Origin: Elusimicrobia bacterium RIFOXYD2_FULL_34_15
GTDB lineage: Bacteria; Elusimicrobiota; UBA8919
Direction: 5' to 3'
Length of the DNA stretch: 42,164 nucleotides
Assembly (NCBI GenBank): GCA_001800605.1
Contig: MGVS01000068.1
Span: forward strand, 78,028-120,191
A model generated the notes under the pieces. That model was given only the letters and a program-made list of their open reading frames with translations, ran no database searches and had not been told where the DNA came from. The position numbers and the translations under genes were made by a program. Numbering within the stretch: position 1 is the first letter of the stretch; the number at the start of each line of letters is the position of its first letter. Of this stretch, positions 1,086-20,338 are shown in pieces.

Positions 1086-2633
1086 ATGATGAACACAGAT
1101 AAAAAAAAATGCGTTGCACTGGTACGCGGTCCCATTGTTTTTAAAAACGGATCTGTTAACAATGAAGCGACTCCCGCAATAGCCTATGCATATATTTCAA
1201 GTTACCTTAATAAATACGGATATAAAACCGTTATCGTTGATGCTATTAAAGAAGGCCTTAATTTAACCTGGCCATTTAAAGACAGACCCGGTTACAGTTG
1301 TCAGGGATTACAATTTGAGAAAATAATTTTTGAAATACCTAAAGATTCGGATATAATCGGATTTTCGGCGATGTTTTCCGGAGAATGGCCGGTTTTGAGA
1401 ACATTGATTGCAAAGGTACGCAAATCTTTTCCGAAAGCATTGTTTGTGGCCGGAGGGGAACACATAACCGCTCTAACTGAATATAGCCTTAGAGATTGTC
1501 CTGAATTAAATGTCTGCGTACGCGGTGAAGGAGAACATACTTTTTATAAACTTTTAGAAACTTATTCAAAAACCGGTAATTTTGCTGATATTGAAGGAAT
1601 AGGATATTTAAATAAAGATAACCAATATTGTCAAAACGGAGATAGAACTCCGCGAATTGAAAATTTAAATGATATTCCATGGCCTGCCTGGCCGGAAGGA
1701 TATTTAGAGACCTTCTGGAAAGAAGGCAAATCATACGGTATCGCTACAAAACGTGACATGCCTTTTATTATATCAAGGGGCTGCCCATATCAATGCACAT
1801 TTTGCTCAAGTCCGCAAATGTGGACAAACCGATATGTTTTGCGGGATATGGATGATATCATCAAGGAAATCAAGTATTACATTACACGATACAATATTAC
1901 AAGCTTGCAGCTATACGACTTAACAGCAATTGTAAAAAAACAGTGGATTATAGAATTTTGTCAGCGATTGATTTCTGAAAAGATAAATCTGTTCTGGTCT
2001 CTGCCGAGCGGAACAAGAAGTGAAGCACTTGATTCAGAAACAATCAGTCTATTAAAAAAGACGGGTTGCAATTACCTTGCTTATGCTCCAGAAAGCGGTT
2101 CGTTGAGAATTCTGGAATTAATAAAAAAAAAGCTTCACCTTAACCGACTAACAGAATCGGTCTTAGAAGCCAGAAGACAGGGTTTAACAGTCCGGATTAA
2201 CCTAATTATCGGCTTTCCCGATGAAACATGGGATGATATTTTTAAAACATTATTTTACGGTCTAAAAATGTCTATTAAAGGGGTGGATGAAGTACCTGTA
2301 TTTATTTTCTCCGCATATCCCGGTACCGAGATTTTCGGCAAGCTTATGAGTGACAAAAAGATTATTTTGAATGACGATTATTTTTTTAATCTTACTTCTT
2401 TAAACGGTTCTTATCTTTCCACAAATTTGATATCTTATAATTCTAATATAAGTTCAAAACTAATCGTGCTTATCCGCATAGTTTTCACGCTTTTAAATTA
2501 TATTATCGGCTATATTTTGTATCCGAAACGTGTATTCCGTACTATTAAAAATTTATTTTCACAAAAAAATGCAGCAACCGTTTTTGAGCATCGCCTGAAA
2601 GATTTATTCAAAAGAAAAAATATAAATGATTAA
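1086..2633 (+). CDS. B12-binding-type radical SAM protein
   Basis: This 515-residue protein has an N-terminal Rossmann-like B12-binding region (about 1-160, including GGEH and RGEGEHTF). The radical SAM core starts at about 220, with the CxxxCxxC cysteines at 233, 237 and 240 in SRGCPYQCTFC. A GFPDETWDD segment near 380 is typical of this subgroup. The DxHxxG base-off cobalamin motif is not visible, so cobalamin use is inferred from the fold only. ATG at 1086 and at 1089 are both possible starts. The C-terminal 80 residues contain one hydrophobic stretch (IVFTLLNYIIGYILY), suggesting membrane association. The stop overlaps the next gene by 8 bases. It probably modifies a lipid or glycan made by the surrounding cluster; the substrate is unknown. 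Confidence 0.9.
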   Translation: MMNTDKKKCVALVRGPIVFKNGSVNNEATPAIAYAYISSYLNKYGYKTVIVDAIKEGLNLTWPFKDRPGYSCQGLQFEKIIFEIPKDSDIIGFSAMFSGEWPVLRTLIAKVRKSFPKALFVAGGEHITALTEYSLRDCPELNVCVRGEGEHTFYKLLETYSKTGNFADIEGIGYLNKDNQYCQNGDRTPRIENLNDIPWPAWPEGYLETFWKEGKSYGIATKRDMPFIISRGCPYQCTFCSSPQMWTNRYVLRDMDDIIKEIKYYITRYNITSLQLYDLTAIVKKQWIIEFCQRLISEKINLFWSLPSGTRSEALDSETISLLKKTGCNYLAYAPESGSLRILELIKKKLHLNRLTESVLEARRQGLTVRINLIIGFPDETWDDIFKTLFYGLKMSIKGVDEVPVFIFSAYPGTEIFGKLMSDKKIILNDDYFFNLTSLNGSYLSTNLISYNSNISSKLIVLIRIVFTLLNYIIGYILYPKRVFRTIKNLFSQKNAATVFEHRLKDLFKRKNIND

Positions 2634-4485
2634 GAATTTACCCGTAGATTTGTTAAGTATTATTATTTTATACCTTGCATCGGTAATATTAGGAAGAAAA
2701 ATACTGAAATGGTTTAAATTTTATAATGCAATTAATGAAAATTATATCTTTTCATTTGGCGTAGGATTATTTTTTTTAATATTTTCAACTTTCATTCTGG
2801 GACATTTAGGCCTTTTATACAAAAAATTATTTTTAACATTATTTGCTCTTTTATTTTTACTTAATTTCAAAGAAACAAAGGAAATAATTCTAAACTTTAC
2901 CAGTATATCATACTCGATAATTAAACAATTAAAAAACCGTTCTCTTATAAATTTGGTACTGCTTATAATCCTTTTCTCAAACATAACCTTTAATTTTTTA
3001 TACAACTATGCTCCGCCTGCAGCTGATGATGAGCTTATTTACCAAATAAGCCTGCCTAGATACTACTATGATAACCACAGAATAATTGTTAGGAATGACA
3101 ATTTCAGCAGTTACTATCCGCAATACGGGCAATTGTTATTTACTCTTGCAATGGTAACCGGAAGTCCGTTGTCTGCCAAACTTATGGTATATTTTATAGG
3201 ACTCTTATTAATATTGATTTTGTATAATTTCACAAAAAAATATACTTCCAAAGAAACCGCGCTATTAACCATTGTAATTTTTTATACCATGCCCATTATC
3301 ACTTCGTTAACAGGTATTACTTCTGCAGATATAATAAATATCTTTTTCCTGCTTTTATCCGTGTATGCTTTTTTCAACTGGGAAGATGATATGGAGGAAA
3401 ACAAATGGTTTTATCTCAGCGCTTTTTTTGCAGGAATTTCATTGGGCACCCGGCCTCATAGTTATCCGATCGTAGGTGCTTTAATTTTATTTGTTTTTAT
3501 ACTGCTTTTATTTGATAAAACTGTAAACATTAAGACTACTCTTTTAAAAATGATAACTTATTGTTTAATTGTATTTGCAATGTTTTCGCCATGGCTAATA
3601 CGCAGCTTTTTATTTACAGGCAATCCGACATATCCCATGAAACTAATATCCGGTATGGCTGATGATAAATATTTTACTATGATGATGAAATTTCGTTTAG
3701 TAGATAAAAATCTTTTAACCTTTTTATATAAATTTCCAACAAAGCCCATAATATGGAGTTGTGGTGCGATAATTGTAGCTTTTGCACCGATAATTTTATT
3801 TTTTAAAGATTCTGTGTTCGCTAAACGCATATTTCTTCTTTCTGCACTAATTATGCTTATAGTTTATGCAATATTTGTTCCGGAACAGAGATATTATTTA
3901 CTATCATTTCCTTTATTATCAATTTGTGCTGCATCTTCTATATCATTAATTATAAATAAAATATCTTCGATATGGAGGAAAATAATATATATTGTTGTAG
4001 TTTTCGCTCTAATTCTTCCTAATGCAGTTTTTAGCGCTTATTGGGGTTTTAAAAGAATACCGCTGTTTATTGGAAAAGAATCTGTAGATTCTTATCTAAC
4101 CCGTGAATATACCATTTTAGAAACTTATCCTGTAGTAAAATATATAAATGAAAATATTCCTAAAAACAAAAAAGTTCTGTTTCTTGGTACGGTATGGGCA
4201 CCGCAATATTACTACCAGAATAATATGGCGCTGGGAATGGGAGAATATCCTCCGGATTTTTTCAGCCAAAATATTAAAGAGGTCATTGCGCGTTTACATC
4301 AAGATGGTGTAAACTACCTGGTACTTCTTAGAAAAGATCTGACAAAAGATAATGAAAATAACCTTTTTTACACTTATTTATACCAGCCGCCGGGAATGTG
4401 TATATCATGGTTAAATAATAATAATAAGAAAAACTTTAAACTGCTCTATGAAAAAAACGATGTTGAAGTATACGAGGTTAAATGA
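2626..4485 (+). CDS. Polytopic GT-C-like membrane glycosyltransferase
   Basis: 619 residues with about ten to twelve hydrophobic segments, followed by a soluble C-terminal portion of about 130 residues. After the third to fourth hydrophobic segment comes an acidic loop (APPAADDELIYQISLP, near 127-145) of the kind that carries the catalytic Asp in GT-C enzymes (PMT/ArnT/RgtA-like), which transfer sugars from polyprenyl-phosphate donors on the outer face of the cytoplasmic membrane. The gene at 22712 has the same layout (APPTFYDSLVYHLSIP loop and similar C-terminal YPxxKY segment), so the two look like paralogues. It overlaps the preceding radical SAM gene by 8 bases and the next small ORF by 4. 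The acceptor and sugar are not determinable. Confidence 0.8.
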   Translation: MIKNLPVDLLSIIILYLASVILGRKILKWFKFYNAINENYIFSFGVGLFFLIFSTFILGHLGLLYKKLFLTLFALLFLLNFKETKEIILNFTSISYSIIKQLKNRSLINLVLLIILFSNITFNFLYNYAPPAADDELIYQISLPRYYYDNHRIIVRNDNFSSYYPQYGQLLFTLAMVTGSPLSAKLMVYFIGLLLILILYNFTKKYTSKETALLTIVIFYTMPIITSLTGITSADIINIFFLLLSVYAFFNWEDDMEENKWFYLSAFFAGISLGTRPHSYPIVGALILFVFILLLFDKTVNIKTTLLKMITYCLIVFAMFSPWLIRSFLFTGNPTYPMKLISGMADDKYFTMMMKFRLVDKNLLTFLYKFPTKPIIWSCGAIIVAFAPIILFFKDSVFAKRIFLLSALIMLIVYAIFVPEQRYYLLSFPLLSICAASSISLIINKISSIWRKIIYIVVVFALILPNAVFSAYWGFKRIPLFIGKESVDSYLTREYTILETYPVVKYINENIPKNKKVLFLGTVWAPQYYYQNNMALGMGEYPPDFFSQNIKEVIARLHQDGVNYLVLLRKDLTKDNENNLFYTYLYQPPGMCISWLNNNNKKNFKLLYEKNDVEVYEVK

Positions 4486-11504: not shown

Positions 11505-11529
11505 AAAAAAATAAGAATTGGAGATGAAT

Positions 11530-13521
11530 ATGGATGGAGAGTCAAAAGATGTAAAGCAGGAAAAAATTGAGAAACTGAAAGGAGTATTACCTGAGATATT
11601 TACCGAGGGCAAAATTGACTTGCATCAGTTACATCTTACGCTCGGTGAAGTGGTTGTAACCGAAGGCGAAAGATATGTATTAAACTGGGCGGGCAAAACA
11701 GATGCCTTTAAGGTATTGCAGGAAACAACTACGGCAACGCTTGTGCCGGCGGAAAAAGAATCCATTGAATTTGACAAGACCGGAAACATTTTCATAGAAG
11801 GCGAAAACCTTGAGGTCTTGAAGGTTCTGCAAAAAGCGTATTACGGCAAAATAAAAATGATTTACATTGACCCGCCTTACAACACCGGTAACGACAGTTT
11901 TATCTATCCCGACAGATTTCAAGAATCAAAAGGCGAATATCTAAAACGTATTGGCGACAAAGACGAAGAAGGACTACTAACCAAAGAAGGACTTTTCAGA
12001 AAAAACAACAAAGAGAGCGGACACTTCCATAGTAATTGGCTTTCAATGATGTATCCGCGACTGTTTTTGGCACGGAATCTATTGCGTGAAGACGGCGTTA
12101 TATTTGTTTCCATTGATGACAACGAAGTTCACAACCTGCGGTTATTGATGAACGAAATCTTTGGTGAAGAGAATTTTATTGATACTATTTGTTGGAAGAA
12201 AAAATATGGTGGTGGTGCAAAAGAAAAATATTTAGTTTCTGTTCATGAGTATATATTGGTTTATGCCAAAGTCAAGATTGATTTACCAGAAATATTGGTT
12301 GAATTTGAGGAAGAAAAAGCAAAACGTTTTTATAAATATAAAGATGAAAAATTTGAGAAACTTGGATATTACAGGACACATCCTTTAGAAGCTGTAAAGA
12401 GTTTTGATACAAGAGATAACTTAAAATTTTCTGTAATTGCACCAGATGGTACAAAAGTATATCCTAAAAGGCAATGGAGGTGGAGCAAAGAAAGATTTGA
12501 AGAAGCTTTATCAAAAGATGAAGTTATTTTTAATAAAAATAAAGATGGTGAGTGGGTGCTTTATTCAAAACAATATCTAAATGAAGAAAATGGAGAACAA
12601 CGTAAGACTAAAGCTCAATCATTAATAGATGATATTTTTACTCAAGAAGGGACTAAGGAAGTTGTTGATATTTTTGGAGATGCTAAAATATTTTCTTTCC
12701 CCAAGCCAAATAGACTTGCTAAAAAACTTATTGAAATTGGTGGATTAAGTTGTAACGACTTAGTTCTTGACTTTTTTGCTGGTTCTGGGACTACTGCTCA
12801 TGCAGTTTTGGATTTGAATAAAGGAGATGGTGGAAATCGTAAGTTTATATGTGTCCAGATGCCGGAAAAATGCGATGAGGACTCTGAAGCATTTAAGGCC
12901 GGTTACAAAACAATTGCTGAAATATGTAAAGAGCGTATCCGCCGAGTAATTATAAAGTTAAAGGATGTCATTGCGAACGATTCAAAACAGTCAAAATTGC
13001 ATCTTAGCCGTCACCCTGAGAGTAACGAAGGGTCTCGTATTTTAAAAGCAGATTCTTCGTCTTCCTTCGACTCCGCTCAGGACGAGTCGCCTCAGAATGA
13101 CCCCCAAGAGACGGGAGACCTCGGCTTCAAAGTATTCAAACTCCAACCGTCAAACTTCAAAATATGGCGAAGCGATATAAAAGAAGACGACCTACCGAAA
13201 CAACTTGACGCATTTGAAAAACCGATAAAATCCGAATCACAAATAACAAATATGATGTGGGAAATACTTTTGAAATCAGGCTATGACCTCAATACAAAAA
13301 TAGAAGAAAATAAAATAGACGATTGCGATGTATTTTCCGTCGCTGACAATGAGATAATCCTGGCACTCTCAAAAATAAGCGAAAAGGCGATAAAAGAGAT
13401 AACAACACTGAAGCCAAAAAAGTTTATCTGCCTTGATTCGCTGTTTTCCGGCAACGACCAACTAAAAACCAACACCGCCCTTCAACTCAAAGACGCCGGC
13501 GTAGAATTTAAGACAATATAG
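11530..13521 (+). CDS. mod: Type III restriction-modification DNA methyltransferase (Mod)
   Basis: Site-specific adenine methyltransferase that also provides target recognition for the Res subunit. Numbered from ATG 11530, the catalytic DPPY is at 114-117 (YIDPPYNTGND) and the SAM-binding FAGSG at 416-420. This DPPY-first order with the recognition region between them is the beta-class layout of Type III Mod. TTG 11518 and ATG 11524 are also in frame, but GGAG at 11520-11523 sits 6 bases from ATG 11530, so I chose that (664 aa, usual size 600-680). Residues 480-524 (12967-13101) are translated dispersed repeats lying after the catalytic motifs, in the linker before the conserved tail. The frame stays open, so activity is plausible. 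Confidence 0.93.
   Translation: MDGESKDVKQEKIEKLKGVLPEIFTEGKIDLHQLHLTLGEVVVTEGERYVLNWAGKTDAFKVLQETTTATLVPAEKESIEFDKTGNIFIEGENLEVLKVLQKAYYGKIKMIYIDPPYNTGNDSFIYPDRFQESKGEYLKRIGDKDEEGLLTKEGLFRKNNKESGHFHSNWLSMMYPRLFLARNLLREDGVIFVSIDDNEVHNLRLLMNEIFGEENFIDTICWKKKYGGGAKEKYLVSVHEYILVYAKVKIDLPEILVEFEEEKAKRFYKYKDEKFEKLGYYRTHPLEAVKSFDTRDNLKFSVIAPDGTKVYPKRQWRWSKERFEEALSKDEVIFNKNKDGEWVLYSKQYLNEENGEQRKTKAQSLIDDIFTQEGTKEVVDIFGDAKIFSFPKPNRLAKKLIEIGGLSCNDLVLDFFAGSGTTAHAVLDLNKGDGGNRKFICVQMPEKCDEDSEAFKAGYKTIAEICKERIRRVIIKLKDVIANDSKQSKLHLSRHPESNEGSRILKADSSSSFDSAQDESPQNDPQETGDLGFKVFKLQPSNFKIWRSDIKEDDLPKQLDAFEKPIKSESQITNMMWEILLKSGYDLNTKIEENKIDDCDVFSVADNEIILALSKISEKAIKEITTLKPKKFICLDSLFSGNDQLKTNTALQLKDAGVEFKTI
12967..13101 (+). 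repeat. Dispersed palindromic repeats read in frame inside mod
   Basis: Exactly 135 bases (45 codons). The first part, from 12967, reads VIANDSKQS and corresponds to the well-known GTCATTGCGA...-type dispersed repeat. The second part, 13010-13101, is bounded by GTCACCCTGAG and CTCAGAATGAC (imperfect inverted ends) and reads HPESNEGS ... SFDSAQDE ... PQND. The CCTTCGACTCC and GCTCAGGAC core also occurs after asnB (6518-6598). The residues are low in complexity and rich in Ser, Asp and Gln, unlike the rest of Mod. Confidence 0.75.
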
Positions 13522-13945: not shown

Positions 13946-14027
13946 AATTATGAAACTACATTTTGAATCAACAGAAAAGTTTTTAAGAATTAAAGGGTCA
14001 CACCAATTAATTTTAGGTGAACAAAAT

Positions 14028-15461
14028 ATGACAAGAAATGAACTTATTAAGCGATTACAGGATATTGAATGGGAAGATTTTGAAGTAAAAGAGGCAAAAT
14101 CCGAAGTTCCTAAAAATGTATGGGAAACCGTCGGCGCTTTTGCCAATACATCGGGCGGATGGGTAATACTTGGAGTAAAAATATCCGGGAAAAAATACAC
14201 TGTTTTAGGGGTTGATAATCCGGAAAAGGTTGAGCAGGATTTTACAACAATATTGAGAGGACAGAAGTTTAACAGGAAATTAGAATTCAAATGCAAGAAA
14301 TACAAAATTGACAATAAAACAGTATTGGGATTTTACATAGTGTCGGCATCTTCAAAAGACAAGCCGATTTACTTTAACAACCAGGCAAATACTTTTATCA
14401 GAACCGGAAGCGGCGACCAGAGAGCAACAAAAGAAGAAATTGACGCTATGTACAGAAATTCTTCTTTTGATAAAAAAGATGAAGAGAAAACAAAACTTAA
14501 AATTACTCATCTGGATACCTCAACTGTGCAGAGATATAGAAATCATCTCAAGAACATCAATCCGGAACACAGGTATAATCAGTTATCACCCACGGAGTTG
14601 ATGGAAAAACTGAAAGTTGTTGTTGATGGCAAGGTTACTGTTGGAGGACTTTTGTTTTTTGGCAAAGAAGACAGTATAAGGAACTATATATCGGATTTCC
14701 GCATAGATTACCTTGAAGTAATGGGTACTTCATATGAAGATGCTCCGGAAAGGTATCAATACAGGTTGCCGGAAGAAAAAAACCTATACAGTTATTATTT
14801 TGCAATTTATGAAAGATTAATTAAAAAAATAGATATTCCTTTTAAACTGAAAGGCGCATTTCGCGATGAAAACCAACCACAGGTAATTGCTATTCGTGAA
14901 GCATTGGTTAATTTACTGATGCATACCGACTATTTCAGCAATGCTAAACCCAGAATAAGAGTGTTTGTTGATAGAATTGAGTTTTTTAACCCTGGCGCTT
15001 TACCGAAAGCGTTAAAATGTATTATAAAAGAAGATTTTTCTATGCCGAGAAACCCGACAATAGCAAAGATATTCAGGATAATAAATCTATCCGAAAATAT
15101 CGGTTCTGGTTTTGATAAAATGATAAACGGCTGGAAATATTTTTATAAGATAGAACCTGAAATAACCGGCGATTTTGATTATTACAAGATAGTTTTTAGG
15201 TTTGGAGATGAAAAAAGAATTCCGGTAAAAGCAAAAACAGAGAAAACTGTGGAGAAAACTGTGGAGAAAGCTGTGGAGAAAACTGTGGAGAAAATATTAA
15301 CCTTAATAAAAGATAATCCGGCAATTACACAGAAAGAACTTATGGCTAAAACCGGACTAACAAGAAGAGGGGTTGAGTGGAATATTAAAAAAATGAAAAA
15401 AGAAGGAGTTATCAAACGTAAAGGTCCCGATAAAGGCGGTCACTGGGAGATTAAGCCATAA
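14028..15461 (+). CDS. AlbA_2/Schlafen-type ATP-binding protein with C-terminal wHTH
   Basis: 477 residues from ATG 14028, chosen because AGGTGA lies 7 bases upstream. TTG 13932 and ATG 13950 are in frame but lack a good site. The N-terminal AlbA_2/Schlafen-like domain (about 1-130) has FEVKEAKSE and the GAFANTSGGWVILGV motif. A HATPase_c_4-like region follows (REALVNLLMHTDY, then ENIGSGFDKM). The C-terminus is a winged helix (TQKELMAKTGLTRRGVEWNIKKM, about 425-460). The linker is a tandem EKTV repeat. Family members are annotated as transcriptional regulators or RecG-like ATPases and are frequent next to restriction systems. Here it lies between mod and res, so a regulatory or accessory defence role is likely; the reaction is unknown. 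Confidence 0.8.
   Translation: MTRNELIKRLQDIEWEDFEVKEAKSEVPKNVWETVGAFANTSGGWVILGVKISGKKYTVLGVDNPEKVEQDFTTILRGQKFNRKLEFKCKKYKIDNKTVLGFYIVSASSKDKPIYFNNQANTFIRTGSGDQRATKEEIDAMYRNSSFDKKDEEKTKLKITHLDTSTVQRYRNHLKNINPEHRYNQLSPTELMEKLKVVVDGKVTVGGLLFFGKEDSIRNYISDFRIDYLEVMGTSYEDAPERYQYRLPEEKNLYSYYFAIYERLIKKIDIPFKLKGAFRDENQPQVIAIREALVNLLMHTDYFSNAKPRIRVFVDRIEFFNPGALPKALKCIIKEDFSMPRNPTIAKIFRIINLSENIGSGFDKMINGWKYFYKIEPEITGDFDYYKIVFRFGDEKRIPVKAKTEKTVEKTVEKAVEKTVEKILTLIKDNPAITQKELMAKTGLTRRGVEWNIKKMKKEGVIKRKGPDKGGHWEIKP
15240..15293 (+). repeat. 12-bp tandem repeat in AlbA-type gene linker
   Basis: Four full units of GAGAAA(A/G)CTGTG at 15240-15287 plus GAGAAA, encoding EKTV EKTV EKAV EKTV EK. The repeat is a multiple of three, so changes in copy number would alter linker length between the ATPase and wHTH domains without a frameshift. 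Confidence 0.9.
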
Positions 15462-15614
15462 TTTAACAGACGAAATTGCAAATAAAGACAAAAAAATATT
15501 GGCTCATTTAAGAAATCTAAATGGGTTTTATCGTGACACTTAGAAGTAAGTTAGAAGTAAATTGATTTATGAAACTACCTTTTTGACCAGAACTAATAGC
15601 AACGGAGAAAAAAA
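15462..15614. other. Intergenic spacer with possible gene remnant
   Basis: Bases 15463-15543 read without interruption as LTDEIANKDKKILAHLRN and a few more residues to a TAG, which looks protein-like but matches no family I can name. After it is a direct repeat TTAGAAGTAA (twice, 15540-15560) and the ATGAAACTAC motif (15569) that also occurs at 13950 and 17584. GGAG at 15604 serves the next gene. Confidence 0.4.
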
Positions 15615-17067
15615 ATGACAAAACAAGAAATGATAGATAAACTACCCGAGTTACTTTTACTTCCACAAGAGACTGAGTGGGTTGAATTTAAACACAACAA
15701 TTTTAAACCACAAGATATTGGTGAATACATATCTGCTTTATCAAACTCTGCATGTTTACATAAAAAAGATAATGGATATCTTGTATTCGGTATAGAAGAT
15801 AGAACTAAAAAAGTACTCGGAACTAATTTTAAACCAGTAAATGAAAAAGTGGGTAATGAAGAGTTAGAAAATTGGTTGTGTCATTTAATAGAACCTAGAA
15901 TAGATTTTAAAATTCACACTTTCATATATGAAGAAAAACCTATTGTAACATTTAGTATAGATGCGGCTCATGAGAGACCAGTAAAATTTAATGGAATTGC
16001 GTATATTCGTGTAGGAACTTATAAAAAAAATTGTCTGAACATCCCGAAAAAGAGCGAAAAATATGGGACAGGACCGCTTCTAATTCGTTTGAGCAGGGAA
16101 TAACTTTAGAAAATATATCTCTTAAAAAGGTACTTGAGTTACTTGATTGGGAAAGCTATTTTGATCTTTTGAAACTGCCACAACCAACAAATGAATTTGG
16201 CATTATTGAAAAACTTAAAAATGAGAAAATTATTATTCAGAAACAGAACTTGTTCAATATAACTAATCTCGGTGGTATTCTTTTGGCAAGAAAATTAGAA
16301 GAGTTCGAAAAATTATCTAGAAAATCTATAAGAGTTATTCAATATAACGGAAGAATAGATTAAATACAATTAAGGAACAAGTGGGTAATAAAGGGTATGC
16401 ATCTGGTTTCCAAGGTTTAGTAGCATATATAAATCAACAATTACCTACAAATGAAGTTATAGAAAAAGCATTAAGAAAAGTCGTTAAGATGTATCCTGAA
16501 ATCGCGATAAGAGAATTAGTTGCTAATGCCTTGATTCATCAGGATTTTACCGAGCAAGGTACCGGGCCGACAGTTGAGATATTTCAGGATAGAATAGAAA
16601 TTACGAATCCAGGAAAACCGTTAATTGAGCCATTAAGATTTATTGACCATCAACCGCAATCAAGAAATGAAAAGATTGCTCATTTTATGAGAAGAGCAAA
16701 TATTTGTGAAGAAAGAGGGAGTGGTATTGACAAAGTAGTTCATTTGGCAGAGATTTTTCAATTACCTGCTCCAAATTTTATTCAAGAGAATAATTTTTTA
16801 AAAGCAATAATGTATACACATAAAACGTTAACACAAATGGACAGAAATGATAAGATAAGAGCTACTTATCAACATTGTTGTTTAAAATATGTTTCAAATG
16901 AAAATATGACAAATCAGTCATTAAGAGAAAGGTTTAAAATAGAACCCAAGAATTATTCTACTGTATCAAGAATAATTGCGGATACTATACAGGAAAAATT
17001 AATTAAAGAATACGACTTAACAAATAAATCACGAAAATATGCAAAATATGTGCCTATTTGGGCATAA
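15615..17067 (+). pseudogene. Second AlbA_2/HATPase-type ATP-binding protein, two frameshifts
   Basis: Three reading frames together encode one AlbA_2 protein of about 483 residues. Frame A (15615 to about 16028) has VEFKHNNFKP and SALSNSACLHKKDNGYLVFGIED. Frame B (about 16031-16363) continues with HPEKERKIWDRTASNSFEQG. Frame C (about 16354-17067) has the GHKL-like part AIRELVANALIHQDFTEQG and ERGSGIDKVVHL, then a C-terminal helical region ending YAKYVPIWA. Each junction is explained by one missing base: an A8 run at 16023-16030 (A9 would restore the frame), and AAGAATAG at 16351-16358. Reading as a gene would need both to be sequencing errors. It is a distinct paralogue of the gene at 14028, with a different C-terminus and no EKTV linker. 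A role in the defence island can only be inferred. Confidence 0.75.
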
Positions 17068-17174
17068 ATCTTATGTGATGGTCATGTGATAGTATGGTTT
17101 TTTGCTCTCTTTAGATTAATAAAACCATTACTTGTGCACTTGCCGGCAAATATCTTATGTGATGGTCATGTGAT
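17068..17174 (+). repeat. 23-bp direct repeat downstream of the broken AlbA-type gene
   Basis: Bases 17068-17090 and 17152-17174 are identical over 23 positions (begins ATCTTATGTGATGG, ends CATGTGAT), 61 bases apart. A partial third unit, CTACGTGATGGTAG, follows at 17178. The repeat unit TGTGATGG is itself internally repetitive. No gene is seen up to 17237. It could be a recombination scar or a binding site. Confidence 0.7.
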
Positions 17175-17686: not shown

Positions 17687-20338
17687 ATGAGATTGAAATT
17701 TGATTCTAACCAGCAGTTCCAGATAGATGCGATAAAATCCATAGTTGATATTTTTGAGGGGCAACCTTTGAGCAAGGGCGACTATGAGTTTTCGCTTTTG
17801 CAGGGCTCCGGCAGTTTGCAATTCAACGAGAATGGTGTCGGCAATAATCTTATACTTTCCGAAGAGCAGATATTGGAAAACTTGAACACTATTCAGAAGA
17901 AAAATGAAATCCCAAATTCTGCATCGCTTGCCGGACTGAATTTTTCAGTAGAAATGGAAACAGGAACAGGCAAGACCTATGTTTATCTGCGTACTATTTA
18001 CGAATTGAACAAGAAATACGGTTTCAAAAAGTTTATTATAGTCGTTCCCAGTGTTGCAATCCGCGAAGGCGTGTTAAAAAATCTTGAAATTACTTTTGAG
18101 CATTTCCAAAATCTTTATGACAAAACACCGACAACGTATCAGGTTTATGATTCTTCCAAAGTTTCCAATTTGCGAGGTTTTGCCTTAAGTAATGCAATTC
18201 AGATACTGGTAATAAATATTGATTCATTTGCCAAGGATATAAATGTTATTAATAAAGAAAACGATAAGCTTACCGGTAAAAAACCGATAGAATTTATCCA
18301 ATCAACAAGACCGATTGTTATTGTTGACGAGCCGCAGAATATGGAAACAGAAATAAGAAAAACAGCAATTACCAAGCTTAATCCGCTATGTACTTTGAGG
18401 TATTCCGCGACACATACGAATCCGTATAATCTTGTTTACCAATTGAACCCTGTAAAGGCGTATGATATGGGACTTGTCAAGCAGATAGAGGTTGATTCTG
18501 TGTTTGCAGAAAATGATTTTAACCGTGCATTTATTCAACTTGAAAACCTAAAGTCAACAAAAACAAAAACCAGCGTAAAATTGAAAATTGACGTCAATAC
18601 CGAAAGAGGTGTTGTAAGAAAATCAATTTCCGCGAAAGTAGGCAATGACCTTTTTGAACTGTCAAATAAATCGGACAGGTATAAAGACGGATTTATTCTT
18701 AACAATATTGATGTCGGAGAGGGATATATTGAACTTTCAAACGGCGACAGGATAAATAAAGGTGAAACAAGAGGCGGTTTGCAGGATGACATAATGAAGG
18801 TTCAAATACGTAAGACCGTTGAGGAGCATTTCAATAAGGAAAAAAACCTTAAAGAAAAAGGGATAAAAGTTTTAACGCTGTTTTTCATTGACAGGGTTGC
18901 AAATTACAGACATTATGACGAATCCGGAAATGCAGTGAAAGGCAAATTTGCAGAGTGGTTTGAACAGATATATGCTGAATTTTTTTCAAAGCCCGCATAT
19001 AAAGGAGTTATACCTTTCAAAGCTGAACAGGTTCATAACGGTTATTTCGCACAGGATAAAAAAGGTATTTTGAAGGATTCATCAGAAAAACGCGAAACTC
19101 AGGCGGACGACGATACTTACCAGTTAATTATGAAGGACAAGGAAAAGCTTTTAGATATAAATAATCCATTGAGATTTATTTTCAGCCATTCAGCATTAAG
19201 AGAGGGTTGGGATAATCCGAATGTTTTTCAAATATGTACCTTAAGAGAAATAAGCACAGAAAGGGAAAGGAGGCAGACCATCGGCAGGGGTTTACGACTT
19301 TCGGTGAATCAGACAGGGGACAGGGTGTTTGACAAGAACATAAACAAATTAACGGTTATAGCAAATGAGAGTTACGAAGAATTTGCCGGTAAATTGCAAA
19401 AAGAAATTGAGGACGATTGCGGTGTTGAGTTTACCGGTAGAATAAAAGACAAAAATAAAAAGGTAAAAGTTAAACTGAAAAAGAACTTTTCACTGGACCC
19501 AAATTTCATAGAGTTATGGAATAAAATAAAATACAAGACGACATACAGGGTAAATTATGATTCGGAAGAATTGATAAAAACCGCATCAAGAGCCATAAAG
19601 AATATGCCTGAGGTAAGAAAACCGGTTATTAAATCGGTAAAGACGGGTTTAGATATGGTTAAGGAAGGAATTACCGGACATCAACTCGGAGTCGGAATTT
19701 ACAAAGCGGATAATATGATAAGCGGAATACCCGATATACTGGGTTACATACAGGGCAAGACAGAGCTGACGCGTTCAACAATTTTAAGGATATTGAAAGA
19801 ATCCGAGCGGTTGCAAGATGTATTTAAAAACCCGCAATTGTTTTTGGATATGGTTGTTGTAGAGATAAAAAATGTTTTGAACGATTTTATGGTTAACGGA
19901 ATAAAATATGAGAAAATCTGGGGACAGGACTACACAATGATGCTTTTCGAGGAAAGTGAAATAGAAACATACATTGAGAATCTTTACAAGGTAACTAAAC
20001 AGGAAAAAACATTGGCGAATTATATAGAAATAAGTTCAATGTCTGAAATAGAACTGCAGTTTGCTAAGGATTGCGAATCGAATGAAAACGTAGGATTCTA
20101 TTTTAAGCTACCACATTGGTTTTTGATAAAAACACCTATTGGTAATTATAATCCGGATTGGGCGCTGGTATTTAAAAATGAGAAAAAATTATATTTTGTT
20201 GCGGAGACAAAAGGTAAACTTGATACATTGAGTTTACGAGGTTCCGAGCAATTGAAAATACAATGCGGAAAATCCCACTTCAAAGAATTCGAGGATGTAG
20301 AATACAAGGTAGTTACAAAATTAGAAGAATTGATTTGA
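17687..20338 (+). CDS. res: Type III restriction enzyme, Res subunit
   Basis: 883 residues, typical for Type III Res. The SF2 helicase core has Walker A in METGTGKT (90-97), motif II DEPQ (214-217), motif III SATH, and the late motifs REGWDNPNVFQ and ERRQTIGRGLRLS. The C-terminal nuclease is of PD-(D/E)xK type, with D824 in NPDWAL and E840-T-K842 in AETKG. With Mod it forms a complex that binds an unmethylated asymmetric site, hydrolyses ATP and cuts when sites meet. All helicase and nuclease motifs I looked for are present and there is no internal stop. The gene is separated from mod by about 4.2 kb of other genes, so it may have its own promoter. Confidence 0.95.
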   Translation: MRLKFDSNQQFQIDAIKSIVDIFEGQPLSKGDYEFSLLQGSGSLQFNENGVGNNLILSEEQILENLNTIQKKNEIPNSASLAGLNFSVEMETGTGKTYVYLRTIYELNKKYGFKKFIIVVPSVAIREGVLKNLEITFEHFQNLYDKTPTTYQVYDSSKVSNLRGFALSNAIQILVINIDSFAKDINVINKENDKLTGKKPIEFIQSTRPIVIVDEPQNMETEIRKTAITKLNPLCTLRYSATHTNPYNLVYQLNPVKAYDMGLVKQIEVDSVFAENDFNRAFIQLENLKSTKTKTSVKLKIDVNTERGVVRKSISAKVGNDLFELSNKSDRYKDGFILNNIDVGEGYIELSNGDRINKGETRGGLQDDIMKVQIRKTVEEHFNKEKNLKEKGIKVLTLFFIDRVANYRHYDESGNAVKGKFAEWFEQIYAEFFSKPAYKGVIPFKAEQVHNGYFAQDKKGILKDSSEKRETQADDDTYQLIMKDKEKLLDINNPLRFIFSHSALREGWDNPNVFQICTLREISTERERRQTIGRGLRLSVNQTGDRVFDKNINKLTVIANESYEEFAGKLQKEIEDDCGVEFTGRIKDKNKKVKVKLKKNFSLDPNFIELWNKIKYKTTYRVNYDSEELIKTASRAIKNMPEVRKPVIKSVKTGLDMVKEGITGHQLGVGIYKADNMISGIPDILGYIQGKTELTRSTILRILKESERLQDVFKNPQLFLDMVVVEIKNVLNDFMVNGIKYEKIWGQDYTMMLFEESEIETYIENLYKVTKQEKTLANYIEISSMSEIELQFAKDCESNENVGFYFKLPHWFLIKTPIGNYNPDWALVFKNEKKLYFVAETKGKLDTLSLRGSEQLKIQCGKSHFKEFEDVEYKVVTKLEELI

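What the first reader, a model, noticed from the sequence alone, without database searches (positions are those of the whole stretch)
12967..13101. Dispersed palindromic repeats translated in frame inside Mod
Exactly 45 codons made of two different dispersed repeat families (VIANDSKQS type and HPESNEGS...FDSAQDE...QND type) sit after the FAGSG motif without breaking the frame. This recalls the protein-coding palindromic elements described in Rickettsia. It may be a tolerated insertion in a linker, or a way to add a flexible segment to a DNA-binding enzyme.
Basis: partly seen in the sequence, partly recalled or inferred. Interest (0 to 1): 0.6.

Follow-up and report, generated by a model that had tools for sequence, protein, structure and literature searches.

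The report
Repeat elements translated inside a methyltransferase
A bacterial DNA-methylating defence enzyme carries about 45 amino acids that are translated from two kinds of scattered palindromic repeat DNA, and related enzymes in several bacterial phyla have repeatedly taken up different repeats at the same two loops, which shows where this protein tolerates foreign inserts and suggests that such genes may carry repeats between genomes.

Summary
In a type III restriction-modification Mod gene (11518-13521) of an Elusimicrobiota MAG, codons 484-528 (12967-13101) consist of a decayed half of one palindromic repeat family and a complete head-to-head dimer of another. Both belong to families dispersed in the same genome (59 matches for the second, control 0). 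A near relative (85% identical in its best-matching stretch) lacks the insert. The net gain is 35-38 residues, not exactly 45, because old linker was overwritten.

The case is not isolated. Among 170 Mod genes, in-frame REPs occur at only two places: this pre-CTD loop (8 genes) and a CTD hairpin (8 genes), needing at least 6 and 8 changes on a tree. Between two alleles about 91% identical in the flanks, only the TRD and this REP block are unalignable: one REP dimer was exchanged for another, in frame. Mod genes hold more REPs than their neighbours. In some hosts the only copies found of a family lie inside Mod.

Best explanation: selfish REP dimers tolerated in disordered loops. In-frame REPs are known (Rickettsia RPEs, CGTC-REPs). 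New are the recurrence at fixed loops of an RM enzyme and the hint that mobile Mod genes carry REPs between phyla.

The parts
11518..13521 (+). mod: type III restriction-modification methyltransferase subunit, 667 aa, beta-class amino-MTase
   Evidence: Pfam N6_N4_Mtase E 3.9e-38; profile match to EcoP15I Mod 4zcf_A E 8.3e-110; best fold match 4zcf, Foldseek E 2.4e-42
12178..12756 (+). target recognition domain region, replaced relative to allele C20
   Evidence: 42-67% identity in 60-nt bins against 83-100% in the flanks; position between the DPPY and FAGSG motifs as in EcoP15I (PMC4490356)
12775..12789 (+). FAGSG (motif I)
   Evidence: sequence; includes invariant columns of alignment A1
12967..12994 (+). 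A-type half REP, decayed, read VIANDSKQS
   Evidence: aligned with intact GTCATTGCGAGTGAAACGAAGCAATCTC in allele C20 and relatives
13010..13101 (+). B-type head-to-head REP dimer, read HPESNEGSRILKADSSSSFDSAQDESPQND
   Evidence: both halves match the B/D pattern; 59 pattern matches in the genome, control 0; hairpin z -2.45
12977..13116 (+). segment exchanged relative to allele G000:C20 (there a C-type REP dimer, C20:4516-4592)
   Evidence: blastn blocks end at 12976 (90.5%) and resume at 13117 (93.4%)
13021..13107 (+). predicted disordered loop, residues 502-530, pLDDT < 50
   Evidence: AlphaFold2 model m4eacb79f84a3, mean pLDDT 83.5
13300..13323 (+). second REP-prone site: CTD hairpin after LNTKIE, empty in this gene, occupied by REPs in eight homologues
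   Evidence: alignment and strict scan
17687..20338 (+). res: type III restriction subunit, 883 aa
   Evidence: ResIII, DEAD and RE_endonuc; NF012027 match, below its cut-off

Best explanation
Short selfish palindromic elements (CGTC-tagged, REP-like dimers) that are dispersed in the genome inserted into, and were later exchanged within, a loop of the type III Mod protein lying between the last helix of the methyltransferase core and the strand before the C-terminal domain. The elements happen to be open in the frame used, and the loop is disordered and free in length, so the enzyme survives with about 35-45 extra residues. Selection removes insertions elsewhere in the gene. Shown: identity as dispersed repeats, in-frame reading, absence in relatives, recurrence at two sites, exchange between alleles, predicted disorder. 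Inferred: insertion by mobility of the repeats, retained enzyme activity, neutrality.
For: Dispersed in the same genome with zero control matches. Relatives without the insert: G004 (85% in its best-matching stretch), linker KKIKEEEKQLKLEKKEIDLGFK, and G034. Different REPs at the same spot in relatives: L062/C20 (A half plus C dimer), L063 (A half plus B half), L070 (A dimer), L078 (D/B dimer), L189, L196, L197 (C type). In the scan of 170 Mod genes the sixteen clear occupied sites all fall in the two loops; reversed control 0. Tree with the linker removed where it could be located: at least 6 changes at site 1 and 8 at site 2. Allele comparison: only the TRD and the REP block diverge between ~91% identical flanks; REP dimers of 92 and 77 nt differ by 15 nt, so frame is kept. 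Close pairs with different linkers: L070/L189 (79% nt, A dimer versus C dimer), L196/L205 (83% nt, C dimer versus none). Disorder at 502-530. MTase motifs intact and a Res partner downstream. Other proteins of this genome also carry in-frame REPs (TPR membrane proteins L157:249-2300 and 2342-4330).
Against: No target-site duplication was defined; old linker seems overwritten rather than cleanly split. None of five Y1 transposase genes in the genome is flanked by these repeats, so the mover is unknown. Enzyme activity is unproven. The number of independent gains is a parsimony minimum of state changes that cannot tell gain from loss, from a quick tree with many weak forks.
Confidence: 0.88

Rival explanations
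1. The REP-derived peptide is kept because it does something useful, such as setting the reach or flexibility between the MTase core and the Res-contacting C-terminal domain.
For: Two spots are used again and again; in EcoP15I the CTD of ModA contacts Res (PMC4490356); Mod holds more REPs than neighbouring DNA.
Against: Length and sequence are unconserved (15-79 aa); the REP allele differs even between close pairs; EcoP15I has almost no linker here; a survival bias explains the two spots.
Confidence: 0.07
2. The hairpin acts at the nucleic-acid level in the mRNA (pausing, stability), and the peptide is a by-product.
For: The B dimer folds better than shuffles (z -2.45) and the C dimer of the other allele has z -4.35.
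Against: Palindromic elements fold by construction; many Mod genes have no hairpin there; several have only half-elements (L063, L135). The whole segment with flanks is not unusual (z -1.16).
Confidence: 0.04
3. Assembly or binning artefact joining repeat-bearing sequence into mod.
For: The window comes from a fragmented assembly (119 contigs); contig C20 is 100% identical over 9006 bp to a sister species' contig, so cross-binning is possible for that contig.
Against: The frame is kept with homologous sequence on both sides; the same arrangement recurs in independent assemblies from different phyla at the same place.
Confidence: 0.01

Closest known systems
Rickettsia palindromic elements (RPEs; Ogata et al. 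2000, 2002, as summarised in PMC10969869 and PMC3733652)
   Same: Dispersed palindromic elements inserted in frame inside genes that probably stay functional, adding tens of residues.
   Different: Another phylum and, as far as seen, other repeat families; here one protein is hit repeatedly at the same two loops in several phyla, with exchanges between alleles.
CGTC-tagged REPs (Di Nocera et al. 2013, PMC3733652), including dRS3 and RPE-4/RPE-6
   Same: CGTC-type tag, inverted dimers, dispersed, sometimes within ORFs (clusters encoding 43-82 aa are reported); many in DNA synthesis and repair genes; X. campestris and X. oryzae recB carry REPs at about the same site.
   Different: C-type dimers fit the published description (8-bp stem, 4-base loop, CCA tail); A and B types share the tag but have only 5-bp outer stems. 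The main text does not mention restriction or methyltransferase genes or Elusimicrobiota.
RAYT-mobilised GTAG REPs
   Same: Short palindromic repeats thought to be non-autonomous mobile units.
   Different: No GTAG tag here, and no Y1 transposase gene flanked by these repeats was found in this genome.
Type III Mod of EcoP15I (PDB 4zcf)
   Same: Fold, domain order and motifs.
   Different: EcoP15I has no insert at this position (RASKK-NRDQGFKVYQL).

Membership tests
Type III restriction-modification Mod | beta-class amino-MTase with DPPY, TRD, then FxGxG | tested here: met
   DPPYNTGND and FAGSG in the translation; Pfam; EcoP15I match
Type III restriction-modification Mod | Res partner with helicase and endonuclease domains in the same locus | tested here: met
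   17687-20338: ResIII, DEAD, RE_endonuc
Type III restriction-modification Mod | site-specific adenine methylation | not testable with these tools
   needs base-modification data
CGTC-tagged REP | terminal CGTC (or TGTC/CCTC) tag | tested here: met
   CGTC at 13009-13012 for the B dimer; definition in PMC3733652
CGTC-tagged REP | stem of 8-9 bp, loop of 4-5 bases, A-T in first and second position | tested here: not met
   A and B halves have a 5-bp outer stem (ATTGC/GCAAT, ACCCT/AGGGT); the C dimer of allele C20 does meet it (ATTCCTGT-GAAA-ACAGGAAT, CCA tail). So A and B are called REP-like, not members of the four published CGTC families
CGTC-tagged REP | organised as head-to-head dimers and dispersed in many copies | tested here: met
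   two inverted halves at 13010-13101; 59 genome matches
Rickettsia palindromic elements | in-frame insertion inside protein-coding genes | tested here: met
Rickettsia palindromic elements | occurrence in the genus Rickettsia | tested here: not met
   a same-genus genome carries the identical C20 locus as record 'Elusimicrobia bacterium UBA9627'. Works like an RPE, is not one
Rickettsia palindromic elements | sequence membership in a published RPE family | not tested
   RPE consensus sequences were not held or compared
RAYT-mobilised REP | REPs flanking a Y1 (TnpA_REP) gene | tested here: not met
   five Y1_Tnp genes in the genome; no A, B or C repeats in the loci fetched around them

The most novel reading that the evidence does not exclude
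Type III mod genes act as vehicles and reservoirs for REP elements. Their two permissive loops capture REPs in REP-rich genomes, and when the RM locus is transferred to other phyla the REPs travel with it, arriving in genomes that have no other copy and so possibly seeding repeat families that lack a transposase of their own. Support: in G677 the only C-family pattern match in 2.9 Mb lies inside Mod; in G344 both A-family matches lie inside Mod; in G346 two of three B/D half-matches are the two halves of the Mod element; Mod holds 12 elements in 315 kb against 5 in 745 kb of neighbouring DNA, window lineage left out, p = 6e-4. Later spread from Mod into the genome is not shown.
Probability: 0.25. 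Interest if true: 0.75.

Novelty: new variant of a known kind. Interest (0 to 1): 0.5.

Why it matters
In-frame REPs are known, but mostly as scattered single cases. Here one protein family with a solved relative offers many natural insertions at two defined loops, with close partners that lack them or carry another repeat. That makes it testable whether coding palindromes are neutral or alter the enzyme. It also gives a concrete, checkable route by which CGTC-type repeats, which have no known transposase (PMC3733652), could cross phylum borders: hitch-hiking inside restriction-modification genes that move horizontally. A practical caution follows: peptides such as VIASEAKQS or LDSRLRGND inside an ORF are translated repeats, not conserved domains.

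Tried and rejected
A loose palindrome detector gave as many control as real hits (11 versus 10) and was dropped for stricter half-element patterns with zero control matches. A transposase origin was looked for: five Y1 genes, none flanked by the repeats. Paper searches for the repeat peptides (VIASEAKQS, LDSRLRGND and others) found nothing. Considered and rejected: assembly artefact, gene fusion, and an intein (far too short; own judgement). Other linkers (L248, L199, L208, L125, L127) look like translated intergenic repeats too, but their dispersal in their genomes was not tested. Matches of 11 bases only (L071, L119, L123) and the one-mismatch match in L241 were treated as chance.

Full report
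What is there. The ORF at 11518-13521 (+) encodes a 667-aa type III restriction-modification Mod: Pfam N6_N4_Mtase, DPPYNTGND and FAGSG motifs, profile match to EcoP15I Mod 4zcf_A at E 8.3e-110, and best fold match 4zcf. A Res gene with ResIII and RE_endonuc domains lies at 17687-20338. Codons 484-528 (12967-13101) consist of a decayed A-type half-repeat (12967-12994), a short spacer, and a complete inverted B-type dimer (13010-13101, tag CGTC at 13009-13012).

The repeats are dispersed. Whole-genome patterns gave 59 B/D matches, 5 A matches and 13 C matches in the 2.47-Mb genome; the control patterns read backwards gave none. A same-genus genome (G001) has 32, 1 and 36 (B/D, A, C); other genomes of the family have 35, 4 and 1 (G004) and 112, 3 and 3 (G007). 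In 413 kb of this genome (window plus fetched stretches) 25 half-elements were found. Most are outside ORFs, but besides the two Mod genes, two adjacent TPR membrane proteins carry them in frame (L157:249-2300 and 2342-4330).

It is an insertion, but not an exact 45-residue one. The distance from ERIRR to GFKVFKL is 59 aa here, 21 aa in the G004 relative (85% identical in its best-matching stretch; KKIKEEEKQLKLEKKEIDLGFK), 24 in L061, and 15-79 over 82 homologues. EcoP15I has almost none. The net gain is 35-38 residues because old linker was overwritten. The AlphaFold2 model (mean pLDDT 83.5) has a helix at 466-496, then pLDDT < 50 at 502-530, then a strand at 537-544 before the C-terminal domain.

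The same loop is hit again and again. L062 and the second allele of this assembly carry an A half plus a C dimer (VIASETKQS...HSCENRNP...GLDSHLRGND). L063 carries A and B halves (HPEHSEGS). L070 carries an A dimer (VIASEAKQS...SSQTPRND), L078 a D/B dimer (CHAERSEASK...SRRDQND), and L189, L196 and L197 C-type elements (such as RESGNP...LDSRLRGND). A second spot, a hairpin in the CTD after LNTKIE, carries REPs in L064, L070, L073, L081, L096, L117, L135 and L139. In a scan of 170 Mod genes the clear elements fall only at these two spots, and the reversed control gave none. On a 135-row tree, with the linker removed where it could be located, this needs at least 6 and 8 changes of state; the tree is a quick one and cannot tell gain from loss.

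Exchange between alleles. The window locus and contig C20 of the same assembly are 92.3%, 90.5% and 93.4% identical in three blocks. The only unalignable parts of mod are the TRD (12178-12756), where type III enzymes change specificity, and the REP block (12977-13116). The second element starts at the same position in both, and the 92-nt B dimer and 77-nt C dimer differ by 15 nt, so the frame is kept. C20 is 100% identical over 9006 bp to a sister species' contig, so it may be cross-binned or recently transferred; either way it is a valid allele for comparison. L070 and L189, from genomes of two different phyla, are 79% identical in nucleotides and carry different dimers; L196 carries a C dimer where the 83% identical L205 has none.

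Enrichment and hosts. Leaving out the window lineage, Mod genes hold 12 elements in 315 kb against 5 in 745 kb of neighbouring DNA, p = 6e-4. This test treats elements as independent, and L064 and L139 may share one by descent. In some hosts Mod holds the only copies found of a family: the single C match of G677 and both A matches of G344. This fits REP-bearing mod genes arriving by horizontal transfer, though loss of other copies is not excluded.

How it most likely works. REP-like dimers enter DNA at many places. In mod, only insertions that are open in frame and lie in disordered, length-tolerant loops survive. Mobility is inferred: none of the five Y1 transposase genes of this genome is flanked by the repeats, and CGTC REPs are reported to lack a dedicated transposase (PMC3733652).

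Relation to known things. RPEs in Rickettsia and intragenic CGTC REPs are the same kind of event (PMC10969869; PMC3733652). The C-type dimer fits the published CGTC description (8-bp stem, 4-base loop, CCA tail); A and B types share the tag but not the stem length, so they are called REP-like rather than members of the four published families. Published features already include dimers in ORFs, DNA repair genes as hosts, and one same-site case (recB). New here are the RM methyltransferase as host, the repeated use of two loops across phyla, the allele exchange, and the vehicle hypothesis.

Noticed in passing
12178-12756 versus G000:C20: The target recognition domain is exchanged between the two Mod alleles while the flanks are about 91% identical, so the two systems probably have different recognition sites.
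   Followed up: partly
G000:C20 (L159): A second, syntenic type III locus in the same assembly, 100% identical over 9006 bp to a contig of a sister species (L062); either cross-binning or very recent transfer.
   Followed up: partly
13959-17067: Between mod and res lie AlbA_2 (Schlafen) genes: one complete (13959-15461) and one that looks broken into an AlbA_2 ORF (15615-16103) and a HATPase_c_4 ORF (16381-17067).
   Followed up: no
15240-15299: 12-bp tandem repeat in frame (EKTVEKTVEKAVEKTVEK) in the AlbA_2 gene; copy number could vary without frameshift. The C20 locus has several repeated segments in the corresponding region.
   Followed up: no
17061-17174: 30-bp direct repeat, two copies 84 bp apart (93% identical), between the broken AlbA_2 gene and res.
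   Followed up: no
L248, L199, L208, L125, L127 (Mod linker): Other linkers look like translated intergenic repeats of other kinds (NIEHLTLNIEH...MINEKCSMINEN, HPNPLPEGEGA, HPSSLILHN, LITHNSTLITDN, VNGQLLMVNE). L248 and L061 are 90% identical in nucleotides but differ in this linker.
   Followed up: partly
L115 and L129 (Mod CTD hairpin): The second site also holds other repeat-like peptides (PRPLGEGRGEG; SSPPILGGVAEGRGG...TPPYQGG).
   Followed up: no
L157:249-2300 and 2342-4330 (G000:C3): Two adjacent TPR membrane proteins in this genome with in-frame REPs.
   Followed up: partly
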